Positions 47,762-64,000 of a DNA stretch of 64,000 bases are shown piece by piece. The position numbers and the translations under genes are program-made. The stretch spans positions 1 through 64,000 of the forward strand of contig CAADGV010000030.1 in assembly GCA_900696645.1 (NCBI GenBank), in the 5' to 3' direction. Source of the stretch: an uncultured Chlorobiota bacterium. Its GTDB lineage: Bacteria; Bacteroidota; Ignavibacteria; UBA10030; UBA6906. The stretch's first letter is position 1, and the number at the start of each line of letters is the position of its first letter. Under the pieces are notes generated by a model. The model ran no database searches. It worked only from the letters and a program-made list of their open reading frames with translations, and was not told the origin of the DNA.

Positions 47762-47794
47762 ATGACACACACCATGAATCTTGGGGAGAGGCGT

Positions 47795-50035
47795 ATGATT
47801 CACAAACAAGTTGTTCTCCGAATATTCTTGAATGTACTGTTGTACGGAGTAATCGGCGCAATGCTTGCGGCGTGCGGTTCTTCACCGCCAGATGACATTC
47901 TGGACAAATCCGGCCAAGCAGCGCTGGTGTTTGTGAAGGAAAAGAGCCGGACGAATAACATCAGCGAGCCGATGCGCAGCAATATCGACAAATACTATCC
48001 CGGCAGTGATCTCTACGTACTCAGCCCGATCTCAAGCCAGGGCAAGCTGACAAATCTGACTGCCCAGTACACAACCAACGGCGTTACCGATCCGCGGAAC
48101 TTCGGTGCTTGTGCCGACCCGGAAGCATCGTACGACGGGAAGAAGATTCTCTTCTCAATGAAAGTAAACCGGAACAGCCGGTGGCGACTCTACGAGATGA
48201 ACGCCGACGGAACCAATCTCGTGCAACTCACGGACGGTTCGACCGGCGACGATATGGATCCGGCGTATCTTCCGAATGGCCAGATTGTGTTCACATCGAC
48301 CCGTCCGGGAATTGTTGATGAGTATGAACGACGCGAATCTCCTCTCCTCCATGTGGGTGATCGTGCGGGTGATGGAAGGCTTGTCAACATCAGGCAGATC
48401 TCGTTCAACCAAAGTCATGACATAAACCCGATGGTTCACTCAAGCGGCAAGGTTATCTATGGCCGCTGGGAACATCTTGGCAACCCGAATAAGTTTCCGT
48501 TGTTCGTTATGAATCCGGACGGGACGCGACCGTTCATCCTGTACGGCAACCACTCTCCGCAGGCAAGCGGCGACAGATCATTTACAGAGGCTCGTGAACT
48601 CTCGGATGGCGGATTAGTGTGCTCGGTGATGGAACGGAACTCTCCGTTTGAAGGCGGCGCAATCGCCATCATTGATATCTCAAAATCGGATGACAATCTC
48701 ACATTCATCTCTCCGCCGGATGCAATCTTCAACAACTCCGGCAGGGCAACAAGCGCCTTCTTCAAAACTCCGCATCCGATTATTGACAAAGGAGCATCGA
48801 CGGAGAGAAGGGAGAAAATCCTTGTTGCCATGTCTCCCATTCCCCGCGAGCCGGGCGGCAGCCGCAGTGAAGGAGTGGACTACGGGATATATATTATGGA
48901 TAAAGACGGTAACAATCTCCGCCTCATCTATAACGATCCCGAGTACAACGAGATCGACCCTGTTCCGCTTCTCCCTCGTGAAAAAATTCCCGGCGGGGTT
49001 CCGCAAGTGATTGCAATGGATCCGAATGTAGCCACCGGACTTGCAACAGCAGCATCAACAGGAATGTTCTTCGACGGCAACGTGTATGATAGGGCGACGA
49101 ACGACGGACAAGTGCGGCCATCGGCGACTTTCGTGAACGATGACGGGTCGGCCGGCCAGGTGAGGTACGTGCGTGTGTTGGAGGCAGTATCGTTGCCGCG
49201 GGAGGGCAACAGGCGAGGTCAGGCCATCGGAAACACGAATCTCGAAAAACAAAGAGTGGTGGGATATGCTGCAGTCAGGTCGGATGGTTCGTTTTCGATT
49301 GAGGTGCCGGCCAACCGTTCGTTGCATCTGCAAACCCTTGACCAGCATGGCGTTATGCTCGTCAACCAATTGACGTGGATTCAGGTGATGCCCGGTGAAA
49401 AGCGTTTGTGCACAGGCTGTCACGATTCTCATGATCGTGACCGGATTATCAACGACCTGCAGATTGCGCCGAACAACCAGGTCTTGAACCGCGCACGCGG
49501 CAGCGCGTATGAATCAGGGTTTCATAACGCCGAAGTCGTTGTGAATCATCCTGCAGCGCGAACCGATACACTCGACTTTTTTGACCGACATCGAACGAAC
49601 CGAACAAACACAGTTCAGGCAGTTTTTGACCGCCGCTGCATTTCCTGTCACGGTGAAACGGCTCCCGCGGGCGCGCTCAGTCTGCAAACAGTTGCAGCCG
49701 ACCTGACGCCGCCCCCGGCAAACAGCAACATTACAACCACTGTGTACGAGAGGATCACGCAGAATGGTACATACCGCACGCCGTCCGGCAGCCAGTTGCG
49801 GTATGTGAGGGACGATGGTGCACGACGCAGTCCGCTCATCTGGGTCATGTTTGGAAAACAATTAAATGATCAAACCAACAGGGATTACAGAACGCTTACG
49901 TACGACCACACACAACTGTGGACGAAGGATCAGTACAACCGAATCGATCCGTTCCTGCCTGCCAACCGTGACTTGCTGATGATGATCGAATGGGTTGACG
50001 CCGGAACCCAGTACTCCAACACTGTAAGCAGATAA
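47795..50035 (+). CDS. Beta-propeller lipoprotein with two haem-c motifs (HzsA-like)
   Basis: The 746-residue lipoprotein (lipidated C27 in MLAACGSS) has a TolB/PD40-type propeller in its first two thirds (YEMNADGTNLVQLTDG, VFTSTRPGIVDEY). Two cytochrome-c sites follow: CTGCH (DSHD after it) and CISCH. This architecture resembles hydrazine-synthase alpha-like proteins, common far outside anammox bacteria and mostly without known function. ATG 47795 has GGAGAGG upstream; the frame to 47762 is not needed. It probably transfers electrons at the outer face, upstream of the DUF4266/DUF3570 pair. Confidence 0.85.
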   Translation: MIHKQVVLRIFLNVLLYGVIGAMLAACGSSPPDDILDKSGQAALVFVKEKSRTNNISEPMRSNIDKYYPGSDLYVLSPISSQGKLTNLTAQYTTNGVTDPRNFGACADPEASYDGKKILFSMKVNRNSRWRLYEMNADGTNLVQLTDGSTGDDMDPAYLPNGQIVFTSTRPGIVDEYERRESPLLHVGDRAGDGRLVNIRQISFNQSHDINPMVHSSGKVIYGRWEHLGNPNKFPLFVMNPDGTRPFILYGNHSPQASGDRSFTEARELSDGGLVCSVMERNSPFEGGAIAIIDISKSDDNLTFISPPDAIFNNSGRATSAFFKTPHPIIDKGASTERREKILVAMSPIPREPGGSRSEGVDYGIYIMDKDGNNLRLIYNDPEYNEIDPVPLLPREKIPGGVPQVIAMDPNVATGLATAASTGMFFDGNVYDRATNDGQVRPSATFVNDDGSAGQVRYVRVLEAVSLPREGNRRGQAIGNTNLEKQRVVGYAAVRSDGSFSIEVPANRSLHLQTLDQHGVMLVNQLTWIQVMPGEKRLCTGCHDSHDRDRIINDLQIAPNNQVLNRARGSAYESGFHNAEVVVNHPAARTDTLDFFDRHRTNRTNTVQAVFDRRCISCHGETAPAGALSLQTVAADLTPPPANSNITTTVYERITQNGTYRTPSGSQLRYVRDDGARRSPLIWVMFGKQLNDQTNRDYRTLTYDHTQLWTKDQYNRIDPFLPANRDLLMMIEWVDAGTQYSNTVSR

Positions 50036-59195: not shown

Positions 59196-60056
59196 TTGGC
59201 GCATAAAGTTTTTCTGTTTTTTCTGTTCTTTGTAGCCGGTACCGCAATTATCGTCGTCGGTATCAACGGATTCAGCTATTACACCACCCCCATTCCCCAG
59301 CGGCCCTTTCTTCCCGAATACAACACCATGAAGCCGTCCGGCAACTACAGCCACGGACTCGGAATTATCGGGGCGTCGATGATTACCATCGGGGTTACAA
59401 TGTATTCGACACGCAAACGAGTGAAGAAACTCTGGAATCTTGGCAAGCTTTCGCGCTGGCTGGAAGTTCACATCTTTCTCTGTTTGCTGGGTCCTATTCT
59501 CGTTGTGTTTCATACCACGTTCAAAGCGGGCGGCATTGCTGCGATCAGTTTGTGGTGTATGGTTTCGGTTGCGGCCAGCGGCATCATCGGCAGGTTTCTC
59601 TATGTACAGATTCCGCGCAACCTCAAGGGGAGTGAATTAACCCGGCAGGAAATCAACAACGAACTGGACAGACTTCGAGACGAGATTGCGCATTCCCCTC
59701 TTGGCATTCAGTTGGTAAACAAGATAGATGAGAGCTTTTTGGCAATTCCGAAACCCGAAAAGCTGCTGGAAATGTTCGGGCTACTAATTCGTCTACAAAA
59801 CACGAGACGCCAGGTGAAACACGCTGTTCGTGAAATGATTGCCAAAAGCAGAATGACGGGGGAACAGACCCGCTCACTCTACAAACTTGCCTCCGCCCGA
59901 ACAACGCTCGTTCAAAAAACAGTACTGCTTGCCCAAGTTGAGAAGTTGTTTTTCTACTGGCATGCGATTCACCTACCGTTTACCGTCATCATGTTCATTA
60001 CGCTGGCCGCTCATGTTTCGGTAACTGTGCTGCTCGGATACCGCTGGATTTTTTGA
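59196..60056 (+). CDS. Dihaem cytochrome-b-like inner-membrane protein
   Basis: The 286-residue membrane protein has about five helices (4-24, 52-70, 88-108, 114-134, 252-280). Two helices carry histidine pairs in the same spacing: H92-x13-H106 and H259-x13-H273, the classical layout for two b haems stacked across a four-helix bundle. The region between (about 140-250) is a soluble helical domain. The start is TTG 59196, fixed by AAAGGAG 5 bases upstream. It is immediately followed by two multihaem cytochromes c, so it is the likely quinol oxidase or membrane step of an electron conduit. No named family was recognised. Confidence 0.78.
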   Translation: MAHKVFLFFLFFVAGTAIIVVGINGFSYYTTPIPQRPFLPEYNTMKPSGNYSHGLGIIGASMITIGVTMYSTRKRVKKLWNLGKLSRWLEVHIFLCLLGPILVVFHTTFKAGGIAAISLWCMVSVAASGIIGRFLYVQIPRNLKGSELTRQEINNELDRLRDEIAHSPLGIQLVNKIDESFLAIPKPEKLLEMFGLLIRLQNTRRQVKHAVREMIAKSRMTGEQTRSLYKLASARTTLVQKTVLLAQVEKLFFYWHAIHLPFTVIMFITLAAHVSVTVLLGYRWIF

Positions 60057-60059
60057 GTG

Positions 60060-61706
60060 ATGAGGATGAAGGAAATAGTCCCGCTGCTGATTTGCCTGAT
60101 GTTGCGGGGAAATATCTATGCCCAGTTCTCGCCGGGCGAGCTCTCCCGCGTCCACATGCAGCTTGAAGGAATCAAGACCTGTCTTCAGTGCCATGAAACA
60201 GGAAAGGAAATCAGCGGGCAGAAATGCCTCGCCTGTCATCAGGAAATCAAGTCAGCAATCGATGCGAAGCGCGGGTATCACTTCAGAGTTGCTGCGCAAC
60301 AATGCGTGGCGTGTCACAAGGAACATCTCGGCCGTGATGCGAAAACGATTCAGTTCGACAAGAATACGTTCGATCATGCGCAGACAGGTTTCAACCGGAC
60401 GGGGAAGCATGCAACAATTCGGTGCGAGGATTGCCATTCCATAAAGAATATCAAGGACCCGCACATTCTTGCACTCGTAAAGGAAACCGGACGGGAGACG
60501 TATCTTGGGCTTTCTCAATCCTGTTCCGATTGCCACACTGACAGGCATAATGCCACAGTAGGCAAGGAATGTCAGGGCTGTCATACAACAACGGCCTGGC
60601 GGCCGGCCACGTCTTTCGATCATTCGAAGACAGAGTTTACACTAAGAGGCACTCACACCAAAGTAGCGTGTATTAAATGCCACACCGATCTTGAAGCAAG
60701 AGAAAAGGAGAAGCCCATTCTTTTCTCAACAAAGCCATTTTCTGACTGCGCCCCCTGCCATCGTTCGTCCCACAGTGTCGAATTTGCAGGAAAGCAAGCT
60801 TGCAGTTCCTGTCATTCGGAAGAGGGTTGGACAAGTGCGCGGGCAAGCACCAAGTTCAACCATGATCTGACACCTTTCCGTTTAATAGGAAAACATGCGA
60901 CTGTTCAATGCGAAAAATGCCACAAATCGACGGCAATTTCGATTCCCGGTCAACGGCTGAAGTTGGCACACAATACGTGTCGTGATTGTCATACAGATTA
61001 TCACAAGGGGGAATTTGCGGCGAGGTTCGAGAGCAAGTGTGAAACGTGCCATACGCCCTTCGGATTCCGGCCGGCAACATATACCATTGCCGCTCACAGC
61101 ACAGCCCGCTTTCCATTGACAGGAGCCCATGTGGCGACACCCTGCGAGAAATGTCACGTGTCAGGGAATGACGGGAGGAAGATCTTTCGGGTTGCGAATA
61201 TCCAATGCGACGGATGCCACAGAGATGTGCACAACGGGCAGTTTGCGTTTGAAATGAAGGGGCAGAGCTGCGCCGCGTGTCATTCAACGGAAGACTGGTT
61301 TCCCAATAAATTCGATCACTCAAAAACAGATTTCGTCCTTGTTGGCAAGCATGCGAAGACGAAGTGTGCAAGCTGTCACAAACCCGTCAGGATCGGAAAT
61401 GCAGAGGTTGCTCAATTCAAGAATACGTCTTCAAAATGCGAATCGTGCCACAAGGAAGTCCACACGAAACAGTTTGCGAAGAGCGGTGAGACAGACTGCG
61501 CAAGTTGTCATGAGCCGTCAGGATGGAAGTCACCGGTATTCGACCACAATACACAAAGTTCGTTTGCACTGACGGGCGCGCACTCGCGTGTGGATTGCCG
61601 TCAGTGTCATCAGGAGGAACAGAGTAGCTTCGGGAGATTTGTTCGCTACAAGCCACTATCAACGAAATGCGAATCATGTCATGCGCAAGGGAGTATCAGG
61701 CAATGA
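60060..61706 (+). CDS. Exported 20-haem cytochrome c
   Basis: The 548-residue exported protein has a signal peptide (VPLLICLMLRGNIYAQ) and 20 CxxCH haem-binding motifs by my count. Recurring segments such as FDHSKTEFTLRGTHTKVACIKCH-type units combine an F-x-H start, an F-x-L-x-G-x-H middle and a CxxCH, so extra His ligands alternate with haem sites. There is no membrane segment beyond the signal. GTG 60057, ATG 60060 and ATG 60066 are possible starts; the gene begins right at the preceding stop. Its own stop overlaps the next cytochrome (ATGA). It should carry electrons through the periplasm. Confidence 0.93.
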   Translation: MRMKEIVPLLICLMLRGNIYAQFSPGELSRVHMQLEGIKTCLQCHETGKEISGQKCLACHQEIKSAIDAKRGYHFRVAAQQCVACHKEHLGRDAKTIQFDKNTFDHAQTGFNRTGKHATIRCEDCHSIKNIKDPHILALVKETGRETYLGLSQSCSDCHTDRHNATVGKECQGCHTTTAWRPATSFDHSKTEFTLRGTHTKVACIKCHTDLEAREKEKPILFSTKPFSDCAPCHRSSHSVEFAGKQACSSCHSEEGWTSARASTKFNHDLTPFRLIGKHATVQCEKCHKSTAISIPGQRLKLAHNTCRDCHTDYHKGEFAARFESKCETCHTPFGFRPATYTIAAHSTARFPLTGAHVATPCEKCHVSGNDGRKIFRVANIQCDGCHRDVHNGQFAFEMKGQSCAACHSTEDWFPNKFDHSKTDFVLVGKHAKTKCASCHKPVRIGNAEVAQFKNTSSKCESCHKEVHTKQFAKSGETDCASCHEPSGWKSPVFDHNTQSSFALTGAHSRVDCRQCHQEEQSSFGRFVRYKPLSTKCESCHAQGSIRQ

Positions 61707-64000
61707 CTAAATCCTTGAACCGCACTGAAAGCAGCCTTACGGCCAATGTATCAGGATGGATATGCAGGAGTACCAGACTGTTCCTTTATCTTAGTATTCT
61801 CACGTCGGTTTTTCTGGGAGTTGAGAAGGGTGTAGCACAGGAATCGCCCCACGGCAAGATCCGGTTCGAATGCAAGACATGCCACACAACGGAAACGTGG
61901 AAAATAAAGGAAGGCGGTATATTCAACCACGAAGCAACCGGTTTTGCATTGACAGGGCAGCACACGTCGTTGCAGTGTGTATCATGTCATCAGGGCCTGA
62001 AGTTTCCCAAGAAGTCATCAGACTGCCTGTCATGTCACACGGATGTCCATAAGAGTGAGATGGGAAACAACTGCTTGCGATGTCATACGACGCAATCATG
62101 GAAGATTGCCGACATGGTGCAGAGACATCAATCAACCCGATTCCCGCTTCTCGGCAAGCACTCGACGTTACCTTGCCAAACATGCCACACCAATGCTGCC
62201 CGGAAACAGTTTGCAGGAACACCGACCGATTGCTTTGGCTGTCATCAGGAGGATTTTACGACGGCTCGATCTCCGAATCATGTTACTTCGGGATTCTCCA
62301 CGGATTGCATGCAGTGCCACGACGTCACAGCGTTCAGGTGGGGAGCGGGATTCCAGCACGAACTGACGCGATTTCCTCTCACAGGGGCGCATGTCGCGGC
62401 ATCGTGCTTTGCCTGTCACAAGAATCAAGTCTTCAAATCAACACCAACAGTATGTGTATCCTGCCATCAGACCGAGTATACATCGACGGCGAATCCGAAC
62501 CATGCAGCGGCCCGCTTTGCGACTGAATGCCAGACGTGCCATACCACATCACGATGGCCGGGAGTCGCGTACAATCACGATCAAACGCGATTCCCGCTGG
62601 TCGGTGCTCATCGCAATCAGCAGTGCAGGGATTGCCATGCTGACAACGTATTTTGGGGAAAGCCAACGGATTGTCTCTCATGCCACCGCACGCAGTTCAA
62701 TTCCGCACAAAACCCGAACCATGTTGCAGGCAGCTTCCCGACGGATTGTCAGCTGTGTCATACGTCGAACGCGTGGAGTCCCGCGCAGTTTGACCATAAC
62801 GCGACACAATTTCCGTTAACAGGGCGGCATGGCAGCACGCAATGCCAGGCGTGTCACATCAACAACAACTACCAGCTTACATACACGAATTGTTACGAGT
62901 GCCATCAAGCGAACTACAATCTGCCGGCAAATCCGCGGCATGTGACACCGAGTTTCGCCCTTGACTGCACGCCGTGTCATTCAACGTCGGCGTGGTCGCC
63001 GTCATCGTTTACTCATAGTGCGACGAGTTTTCCGCTTACAGGGCGTCACGTGAGTACGTTGTGCAACCAGTGCCACGTGAATAATGTGTATCAGAATTTG
63101 CCCGGAACATGCTATGATTGCCATTCAAACAATTATCTTGCGACGACAGATCCGAACCACGTGCAGCGGAATTTCAGCCATGATTGTACGCAGTGCCATT
63201 CAACCAATGGCTGGGATGGCGCGTCGTTTGACCACAATACCACGAACTTTCCTTTGACGGGCAGGCACCTTTCTACACAATGCGCGCAATGTCACATCAA
63301 CGGCAACTATCAGCTTGTGTACACAAACTGCTATCCGTGCCACACAACACAGTACGCTCAACCACAGAACCCGAACCACGTTCTTGGAAACTTCAATCAT
63401 GACTGCGTGCCGTGCCACACGACTACGGCGTGGATGCCATCAACATTCAGTCATTCGACTACACCGTTCCCGCTGGTTGGGGCCCATCAATCTGTGTCGT
63501 GCAATCAATGTCACGTCAACAACCAATATCAGGGGCTTCCGAACACATGCTGGGATTGCCATGCCACGACGTTCAACAACACAACAAATCCGAATCATCA
63601 GCAGGGGCAATTCAGTCACGATTGCTTCCAATGCCATACGCAGTCTGCATGGCAGCCCGCATCATTCAATCATTCAACAACTAATTTTCCGCTGACTGGC
63701 CGGCATCTGACGGCACAATGCCAGCAGTGCCATATAAACGGTAATTATCAGCTTGTGTATACGAATTGCTATCCTTGCCATGCAACGCAATACGCTATTC
63801 CGACAAACCCGAATCACGTCACGCTCCAATTCGGCCACGATTGTACGCCGTGCCATACACAGTCGGCGTGGCTTCCGTCAACCTACAACCACGATCAGCA
63901 ATACTTCAGGATTTACTCCGGGAAGCATCGAAACAAGTGGACGAGTTGCTCGCAATGCCACCCGTCGATCGGGCAATATCAGAACTTCACGTGCATCAGT
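61703..64000 (+). CDS. Giant multihaem cytochrome c, at least 29 haems (3' truncated)
   Basis: ATG 61703 overlaps the previous stop, and the frame stays open for 766 codons to the window end. A signal peptide (core LFLYLSILTSVFLG, cleavage GVAQ) leads to at least 29 complete CxxCH motifs. A thirtieth is cut: the last codons read C-I-S. From 62303 the protein is a tandem repeat of 73 residues (one unit 74), each with three haem motifs and the pattern DCxxCH, W, FxHxxTxFPLTGxH, CxxCH, YQL, CYxCH, NPNH. The extra histidines offer bis-His ligation. It is likely an outer-surface electron wire, exported via Sec. Confidence 0.95.
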   Translation, partial: MTKSLNRTESSLTANVSGWICRSTRLFLYLSILTSVFLGVEKGVAQESPHGKIRFECKTCHTTETWKIKEGGIFNHEATGFALTGQHTSLQCVSCHQGLKFPKKSSDCLSCHTDVHKSEMGNNCLRCHTTQSWKIADMVQRHQSTRFPLLGKHSTLPCQTCHTNAARKQFAGTPTDCFGCHQEDFTTARSPNHVTSGFSTDCMQCHDVTAFRWGAGFQHELTRFPLTGAHVAASCFACHKNQVFKSTPTVCVSCHQTEYTSTANPNHAAARFATECQTCHTTSRWPGVAYNHDQTRFPLVGAHRNQQCRDCHADNVFWGKPTDCLSCHRTQFNSAQNPNHVAGSFPTDCQLCHTSNAWSPAQFDHNATQFPLTGRHGSTQCQACHINNNYQLTYTNCYECHQANYNLPANPRHVTPSFALDCTPCHSTSAWSPSSFTHSATSFPLTGRHVSTLCNQCHVNNVYQNLPGTCYDCHSNNYLATTDPNHVQRNFSHDCTQCHSTNGWDGASFDHNTTNFPLTGRHLSTQCAQCHINGNYQLVYTNCYPCHTTQYAQPQNPNHVLGNFNHDCVPCHTTTAWMPSTFSHSTTPFPLVGAHQSVSCNQCHVNNQYQGLPNTCWDCHATTFNNTTNPNHQQGQFSHDCFQCHTQSAWQPASFNHSTTNFPLTGRHLTAQCQQCHINGNYQLVYTNCYPCHATQYAIPTNPNHVTLQFGHDCTPCHTQSAWLPSTYNHDQQYFRIYSGKHRNKWTSCSQCHPSIGQYQNFTCIS
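62303..64000 (+). repeat. Tandem 219-bp triheme coding repeats
   Basis: The first haem codon of each unit begins at 62303, 62525, 62744, 62963, 63182, 63401, 63620 and 63839 (Asp or Glu before CxxCH). Steps are 222, then six times exactly 219 bases. Later units are the most alike at DNA level (for example 63182 and 63620 onward). The array continues past the window. Confidence 0.95.

What the first reader, a model, noticed from the sequence alone, without database searches (positions are those of the whole stretch)
59196..64000. Candidate electron conduit: dihaem b protein, 20-haem and at-least-29-haem cytochromes in one unit
Seen: three genes with 0- to 4-base junctions. The first has two H-x13-H helices typical of dihaem b cytochromes, the second has 20 CxxCH and the third has at least 29. 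Known: quinol-oxidising b subunits plus multihaem c proteins move electrons to the outside in Geobacter-like systems. Inferred: this is a complete inner-membrane-to-surface route without a recognised porin in view.
Basis: partly seen in the sequence, partly recalled or inferred. Interest (0 to 1): 0.9.

Follow-up and report, generated by a model that had tools for sequence, protein, structure and literature searches.

The report
Bacteroidota haem wire across the envelope
A conserved but unnamed set of genes in many Bacteroidota appears to build a complete wire of haems from the inner membrane, through a new outer-membrane barrel, to the outside of the cell; its outer part comes in lengths that grow in steps of three haems, so many of these bacteria may have an unrecognised way to exchange electrons with their surroundings.

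Summary
In detail: a dihaem-type b protein, a 20-CxxCH and a 31-CxxCH cytochrome (complete past the window end) sit head to tail. The "missing porin" is the next gene: a 531-aa protein at 64102-65694, predicted as a 22-strand outer-membrane barrel, followed by a membrane-anchored NAD(P)H/FAD/Fe-S flavoprotein. The unit b - (TPR) - flavoprotein - 20-haem - long cytochrome - barrel recurs across Bacteroidota: b in 40 and barrel in 38 of 395 genomes, every barrel genome also having b; 553 relatives in species genomes; a complete copy with its own haem lyase on a plasmid of the isolate Emticicia oligotrophica. The inner cytochrome is almost constant (20 haems in 85 of 102), with exactly 20 further invariant histidines. 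The outer one varies from 10 to 64 haems but is 3n+1 in 67 of 79 (77 of 79 counting CxxxCH/CxxxxCH), through a 73-residue three-haem module. Pfam and NCBIfam do not name the b protein or barrel, and I found no paper describing the unit. Best reading: a trans-envelope electron conduit, probably fed by NAD(P)H through the flavoprotein (NADPH-oxidase-like logic) rather than by quinol; entry point and direction are inferred. New variant of the porin-cytochrome kind.

The parts
59196..60056 (+). Dihaem-type b cytochrome, 286 aa; 5 predicted TM helices, H92-x13-H106 and H259-x13-H273, about 100-aa cytoplasmic helical insert
   Evidence: ORF; five His invariant in 36 orthologues; AF2 pLDDT 88; positive-inside loop 71-88 carries +6 net charge; no family reaches its cut-off for the window protein
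60057..61706 (+). 20-haem c cytochrome with Sec signal peptide, predicted periplasmic segment
   Evidence: 20 CxxCH; 20 CxxCH His plus exactly 20 further invariant His in 21 orthologues; Cytochrome_C7 76.9 bits vs cut-off 24.8
61703..64000 (+). Long modular c cytochrome, 31 CxxCH, complete at 64102 beyond the window, with 73-aa three-haem modules in the middle. The rest of the unit lies outside the window on the same contig (numbering continued): outer-membrane barrel 64102-65694 (531 aa, 22 predicted strands) and membrane-anchored FAD/NAD(P)/Fe-S protein 65705-67024 (439 aa)
   Evidence: Cytochrome; Cytochrome_C7 110.3 bits, 9 stretches. Barrel. Flavoprotein:

Best explanation
The operon encodes a trans-envelope electron conduit. 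Electrons from cytoplasmic NAD(P)H enter the membrane-anchored FAD/Fe-S protein, cross the inner membrane through the two b haems of the 59196 product, pass to the 20-haem cytochrome that bridges the periplasm (nearly constant length), and leave through the long three-haem-module cytochrome docked in or on the 22-strand barrel, whose length sets the reach outside the cell. Shown: gene order, haem motifs and counts, conservation, co-occurrence, predicted barrel. Inferred: cofactor occupancy, docking, NAD(P)H rather than quinol as donor, outward direction, final acceptor.
For: Conserved unit across Bacteroidota: b protein in 40 of 395 genomes (33 genera), 37 of these loci with the 20-haem gene beside it; barrel in 38 of 395, all among the 40 (Fisher p about 5e-51, uncorrected for kinship); same order in most of 80 further loci; whole unit with CcsBA haem lyase on Emticicia plasmid pEMTOL02. 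Haems: 40 conserved ligands for 20 haems; three extra His per three-haem module at 96-100%. Length rule: 3n+1 in 67 of 79, 77 of 79 with CxxxCH/CxxxxCH; sibling species 31 vs 37 haems differ by a duplicated pair of modules. Barrel: 22 strands, Z about 20 to TonB-dependent receptor barrels. NAD(P)H entry: invariant GxGPxG, GGGDSA and SYR...F.R.K, Fe-S Cys; distant b relatives also lie beside multihaem c genes, with flavoproteins of different types (FNR-type FAD/NAD/2Fe-2S in Methylophaga, FAD/FHA/Fer2 at G000:C32).
Against: No experiment shows haem loading, location, current or acceptor. The flavoprotein is separated from the b gene by three genes here and was not seen near the unit in some relatives (L070, L074). 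One Fe-S Cys is Ser in part of the family. No lipobox in the long cytochrome, so how it is held at the surface is open. Fold search gives the b protein only weak matches (b561 and STEAP1, Z about 7). The Emticicia carrier is, from general knowledge, an aerobe, so the unit need not mean metal respiration.
Confidence: 0.62

Rival explanations
1. Same conduit, but fed by menaquinol at the b protein, as in CbcL/CymA-type systems; the flavoprotein is a regulator or serves haem or thiol chemistry.
For: Dihaem b helices are typical of quinol-reactive subunits; some loci show no flavoprotein gene near the unit (L070, L074).
Against: Flavoprotein kept within about 16 kb in 34 of 40 loci and between b and the 20-haem gene in many; distant b relatives sit with other NAD(P)H-type flavoproteins; no quinol-family profile match.
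Confidence: 0.3
2. The conduit runs inward: electrons from Fe(II), minerals or partner cells are brought in.
For: Multihaem wires are reversible; carriers include aerobic or microaerobic lineages (Emticicia, and Saprospiraceae and Cytophagaceae titles).
Against: Moving electrons into a negative cytoplasm up to NAD(P)H potential needs energy input and no such coupling is seen (inference).
Confidence: 0.15
3. The barrel is an export pore for the long cytochrome, which is released or forms a filament or a periplasmic charge store (like GSU1996), rather than a sheath of a continuous wire.
For: Foldseek matches include usher barrels; no lipobox on the cytochrome; c7-polymer cytochromes of Geobacter are discussed as capacitors (PMC10138318).
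Against: Ten-haem versions, with the haem number of MtrA, occur with the same barrel; strict barrel-b co-occurrence fits an electron path as well as export.
Confidence: 0.2
4. A multihaem catalytic enzyme (nitrite, hydroxylamine, tetrathionate) rather than a wire.
For: Multihaem c proteins include such enzymes; tetrathionate-type model E 0.09 to the 20-haem protein.
Against: No NrfA/HAO family hit; every haem has a second conserved His, leaving no open site.
Confidence: 0.03

Closest known systems
Mtr/Mto porin-cytochrome system (MtrCAB)
   Same: Outer-membrane barrel plus multihaem cytochromes in one operon; ten-haem minimal versions of the outer cytochrome
   Different: No MtrB_PioB (PF11854) match in the genome or in the barrel family; 22 predicted strands; no lipoprotein decahaem; includes b protein and flavoprotein; 10-64 haems in one chain
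Geobacter-type Pcc clusters, including Ignavibacterium album IALB_1837-1840 (PMC4245776)
   Same: Porin plus periplasmic multihaem cytochromes; same broad lineage
   Different: I. album's Pcc periplasmic cytochrome has 14 haems, 400 aa; no b protein or flavoprotein mentioned for it in the passages read; relation of the barrels could not be tested
GSU1996/GSU0592 dodecahaem 'nanowires' (GSU1996: four trihaem domains)
   Same: Wire of three-haem modules in one chain (PMC10138318)
   Different: Up to 64 haems instead of 12; module spacing 16-25-32; paired with a barrel and inner-membrane entry
NADPH oxidase/ferric reductase/MsrQ and DUF4405 cytochromes
   Same: Membrane b haems on paired His helices; for NOX, a NAD(P)H flavin donor on the cytoplasmic side; DUF4405 shown to bind haem b (PMC11334425)
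   Different: No PF01794 match; flavin domain is a separate TrxR/YpdA-like protein with Fe-S clusters; electrons passed to c haems
Large Ignavibacteria cytochromes of bioanodes (PMC7399161) and the Bacteroidetes_1 EET cluster (PMC8258643)
   Same: Cytochromes with 40 and 33 CxxCH in Ignavibacteria; an uncharacterised MHC plus barrel cluster
   Different: The passages read describe neither this gene order, nor the three-haem rule, nor the flavoprotein; the second cluster has six MHC genes

Membership tests
Mtr/Mto (MtrCAB) | MtrB/PioB-family porin (PF11854) | tested here: not met
   0 matches in the whole genome; none in 28 barrel homologues
Mtr/Mto (MtrCAB) | MtrA/DmsE decahaem (TIGR03508) above cut-off | tested here: not met
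   46.7 bits against 192.2
Geobacter Pcc | OM lipoprotein cytochrome in the cluster | tested here: not met
   No genuine lipobox seen in the two cytochrome families; regex hits in the 20-haem set are the first CxxCH itself, and 5 of 110 long-cytochrome ORFs match a loose pattern
Geobacter Pcc | Porin homologous to OmbB/OmbC | not testable with these tools
   No profile for OmbB in the libraries used
Trans-outer-membrane porin-cytochrome conduit (general kind) | OM barrel co-encoded with signal-peptide multihaem c proteins | tested here: met
Trans-outer-membrane porin-cytochrome conduit (general kind) | Physical barrel-cytochrome complex carrying current | not testable with these tools
   needs biochemistry
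CbcL/ImcH/CymA inner-membrane quinol oxidases | TM helices and CxxCH haems in one chain, NapC or HydC/FdnI-like match | tested here: not met
   No CxxCH in the b protein; no NapC profile; PF01292 in 3 of 36 only, below cut-off where bits were shown
DUF4405 (PF14358) | Pfam match above gathering score | tested here: inconclusive
   16 of 36 members match, best E 1.2e-5 (bits not shown); those scored in detail reached 20.9 bits or less against 26.7, mostly over one His helix
Ferric reductase/NOX (PF01794) | Pfam match and fused FAD/NAD domain | tested here: not met
   flavin domains are on a separate gene
Ferric reductase/NOX (PF01794) | Two H-x12-14-H pairs on two TM helices | tested here: met
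   H92-x13-H106 and H259-x13-H273 invariant, on predicted helices 85-107 and 245-279
Cytochrome c7-type polymers (GSU1996) | Tandem three-haem modules, Cytochrome_C7 match | tested here: met
   110.3 bits, 9 stretches; 143 modules of exactly 73 aa
Cytochrome c7-type polymers (GSU1996) | c7 order of haem spacing and fold | not tested
   Module spacing is 16-25-32; no structure of the module predicted

The most novel reading that the evidence does not exclude
A separate class of extracellular electron conduit, widespread in Bacteroidota and carried by at least one plasmid: NAD(P)H-driven and quinone-independent, with a new barrel family and a surface wire whose reach is adjusted by whole three-haem modules.
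Probability: 0.42. Interest if true: 0.88.

Novelty: new variant of a known kind. Interest (0 to 1): 0.74.

Why it matters
If right, a tenth of sampled Bacteroidota genomes, from groundwater and sediment Ignavibacteria to a cultured Cytophagales isolate, hold an unnamed electron outlet that current annotation calls 'hypothetical' and 'cytochrome c3 family'. It would add a proposed NAD(P)H-fed entry to a field built on quinol-fed systems, give a marker set (b, barrel) for surveys, and provide natural haem wires of 10 to 64 haems on one plan for testing how wire length affects current. It is directly testable in Emticicia oligotrophica DSM 17448.

Tried and rejected
Soluble nitrite/hydroxylamine enzyme: no family hit and no free axial site. 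MtrB porin elsewhere in the genome: none. PDB sequence profiles of the b protein and the barrel: nothing of note. Fold search of the b protein: no significant Foldseek match; VIA rows are mostly helical bundles, b561 and STEAP1 at Z about 7 carry little weight, and NOX was not listed. phmmer of the long cytochrome against PDB: none; module profile hits nine-haem and Hmc-type cytochromes only weakly, over part of the module. Lipobox regex: false hits on the first CxxCH. Rfam upstream: nothing; promoter and terminator counts no more than chance. Literature searches found no description of the unit, but only open-licence papers were searched and supplements could not be read.

Full report
Observation. 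The b gene 59196-60056 starts with TTG behind AAGGAG. The 20-CxxCH gene begins on the next base (60057). The long gene most likely starts at the ATG at 61703, which overlaps the TGA stop of the previous gene (ATGA). The contig continues (G000:C30, 182,766 bases), so the long gene could be closed: it ends at 64102 with 31 CxxCH. Shuffled sequences give at most 4 CxxCH.

What lies beyond the window. One base of overlap later comes a 531-aa gene (64102-65694) and ten bases after it a 439-aa gene (65705-67024). The first has a signal peptide and a C-terminal Phe. AlphaFold with 28 homologues gives a small N-terminal beta domain, a linker of low confidence, and 22 long strands (mean pLDDT 79); the solved structures that fit best are TonB-dependent outer-membrane receptors, which have 22 strands (Z about 20), and other outer-membrane barrels. 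The second carries an N-terminal membrane helix followed by basic residues, two Fe-S cluster motifs, and a YpdA/TrxR-like FAD plus NAD(P) domain pair. Invariant residues include the FAD GxGPxG, the NAD(P) GGGDSA, and SYR...F.R.K, which by analogy with thioredoxin reductase suggests NADPH. The second cluster has an invariant His where the second Cys would be (CxxHxxCxxxCP), and the first has Ser for one Cys in part of the family.

The b protein. In 36 orthologues H92, H106, H256, H259 and H273 never change. H92-x13-H106 and H259-x13-H273 lie on predicted helices 85-107 and 245-279, the layout of two stacked b haems. A loop with net charge +6 places residues 71-88, and by topology the 100-residue helical insert, in the cytoplasm. 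No Pfam or NCBIfam family reaches its cut-off for the window protein; 16 of 36 relatives touch DUF4405, a haem-b-binding membrane cytochrome family (PMC11334425), those scored in detail below threshold. Fold search does not settle the family.

It is a conserved unit. Among 395 Bacteroidota genomes the b protein is in 40 (33 genera) and the barrel in 38, all of them among the 40 (Fisher p about 5e-51, not corrected for kinship). In the two others the b gene is degraded (G093) or the contig ends in the long cytochrome gene (G357). In several assemblies (G078, G318, G381) the contig breaks inside the long gene and the barrel is found on another contig. Of the 40 b loci, 37 have the 20-haem gene beside it and 34 the flavoprotein within about 16 kb. 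The order is b, often a TPR protein with a CcmH/CycH-like TPR match, flavoprotein, 20-haem, long cytochrome, barrel; in the window's own relatives the flavoprotein comes last. A scan of species genomes confirmed 553 relatives; the 80 best, where the title names a group, are Bacteroidota, Ignavibacteria, Chlorobiota or Kryptoniota, and mostly show the same order. A plasmid of Emticicia oligotrophica DSM 17448 (deposited as complete) carries the whole set with its own CcsBA haem lyase; its products are called 'hypothetical', 'NAD(P)-binding' and 'cytochrome c3 family'.

Haem arithmetic. The first cytochrome has 20 haems in 85 of 102 complete copies and 23 in 11. Its 21-sequence alignment has 20 invariant CxxCH plus exactly 20 other invariant histidines (my count from the list), so each haem can have two His ligands and none is left open for catalysis. 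The second varies from 10 to 64 haems, but the number is 3n+1 in 67 of 79 complete copies, and in 77 of 79 when CxxxCH and CxxxxCH are counted. The reason is a module of 73 residues with three CxxCH (spacing 16-25-32) and three further His present in 96-100% of modules. The ten-haem versions have the same kind of start and end with fewer modules between. Between the window's species and its nearest sibling (b protein 95% identical) the chain differs by a duplicated pair of modules, 31 versus 37 haems. The 73-aa module copies within the window's gene are only about 46-61% identical in DNA, so collapse by the assembler is unlikely here. Whole-module change is what tandem-repeat recombination gives, so the rule shows that the module is the unit, not by itself that length is selected.

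How it most likely works. NAD(P)H -> FAD -> Fe-S -> two b haems -> 20-haem bridge -> long cytochrome at the barrel -> outside. Only the parts list and conservation are shown; the order of electron flow is inferred. The main support for the flavoprotein entry is that distant relatives of the b protein also sit beside multihaem c genes, with flavoproteins of different kinds: an FNR-type FAD/NAD/2Fe-2S protein with a 7-haem cytochrome in Methylophaga pinxianii, and a FAD/FHA/Fer2 protein with a 10-haem cytochrome at G000:C32 and in two distant genomes. A compact 186-aa relative next to a 10-haem gene shows no flavoprotein nearby. This is the logic of NADPH oxidases, though not that family by profile. 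Near-constant versus variable length suggests that the 20-haem protein spans the periplasm and the long one reaches outward; this too is inference.

Comparison and novelty. It works like Mtr/Pcc conduits but fails membership tests for Mtr (porin and decahaem profiles) and for the lipoprotein of Pcc; homology to OmbB could not be tested. I. album's known Pcc has a 14-haem periplasmic protein (PMC4245776). Ignavibacteria cytochromes with 40 and 33 CxxCH were noted on bioanodes (PMC7399161), so large cytochromes in this group are not new; I found no text that describes this operon, its barrel, the flavoprotein or the three-haem rule. A homology-independent survey (PMC11475568) found many unnamed MHC neighbourhoods, which may include this one in supplements that I could not read. 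I rate it a new variant of a known kind.

Noticed in passing
L181 (NC_018749.1 72311-91141): Emticicia oligotrophica plasmid pEMTOL02 carries the whole unit with CcsBA and, upstream on the other strand, sigma factor, Rieske and YceI genes; haem counts 23 and 40 fit the rule.
   Followed up: yes
L182 7049-10403: Methylophaga pinxianii plasmid: FNR-type FAD/NAD/2Fe-2S protein, distant b relative (24% identity) and 7-haem cytochrome as a three-gene unit, near a ccm cluster.
   Followed up: partly
L075 (G000:C32:86000-102000); also L183, L184: Conserved odd cluster: FAD/FHA/Fer2 protein, FHA protein, 10-haem cytochrome, distant b relative and cNMP-binding plus 4Fe-4S protein; in G000 also genes that look like a Ser/Thr kinase and a PP2C phosphatase. 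May be a regulated redox unit.
   Followed up: partly
window 47762-50035: PD40 propeller protein with a hydrazine-synthase-alpha middle domain match (76.5 bits, Pfam) and two CxxCH, far below the NCBI hydrazine synthase cut-off.
   Followed up: no
L096 10114-17538 and L097 67-6855 (G000:C9): Second large multihaem region: genes with 13, 19, 4, 6, 11, 12, 5 and 8 CxxCH around membrane subunits.
   Followed up: no
L003 7705-9024, residues 89-100 of the product: Invariant His in place of the second Cys of the second Fe-S motif (CxxHxxCxxxCP).
   Followed up: no
L094 (G136) and G093:C75: Decayed copies: b gene next to a barrel remnant with the cytochromes gone, and a b fragment with an internal TGA.
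   Followed up: no
L003 10029-13436: 1135-aa protein, mostly charged coiled-coil repeats rich in Glu/Arg/Lys, downstream of the unit.
   Followed up: no
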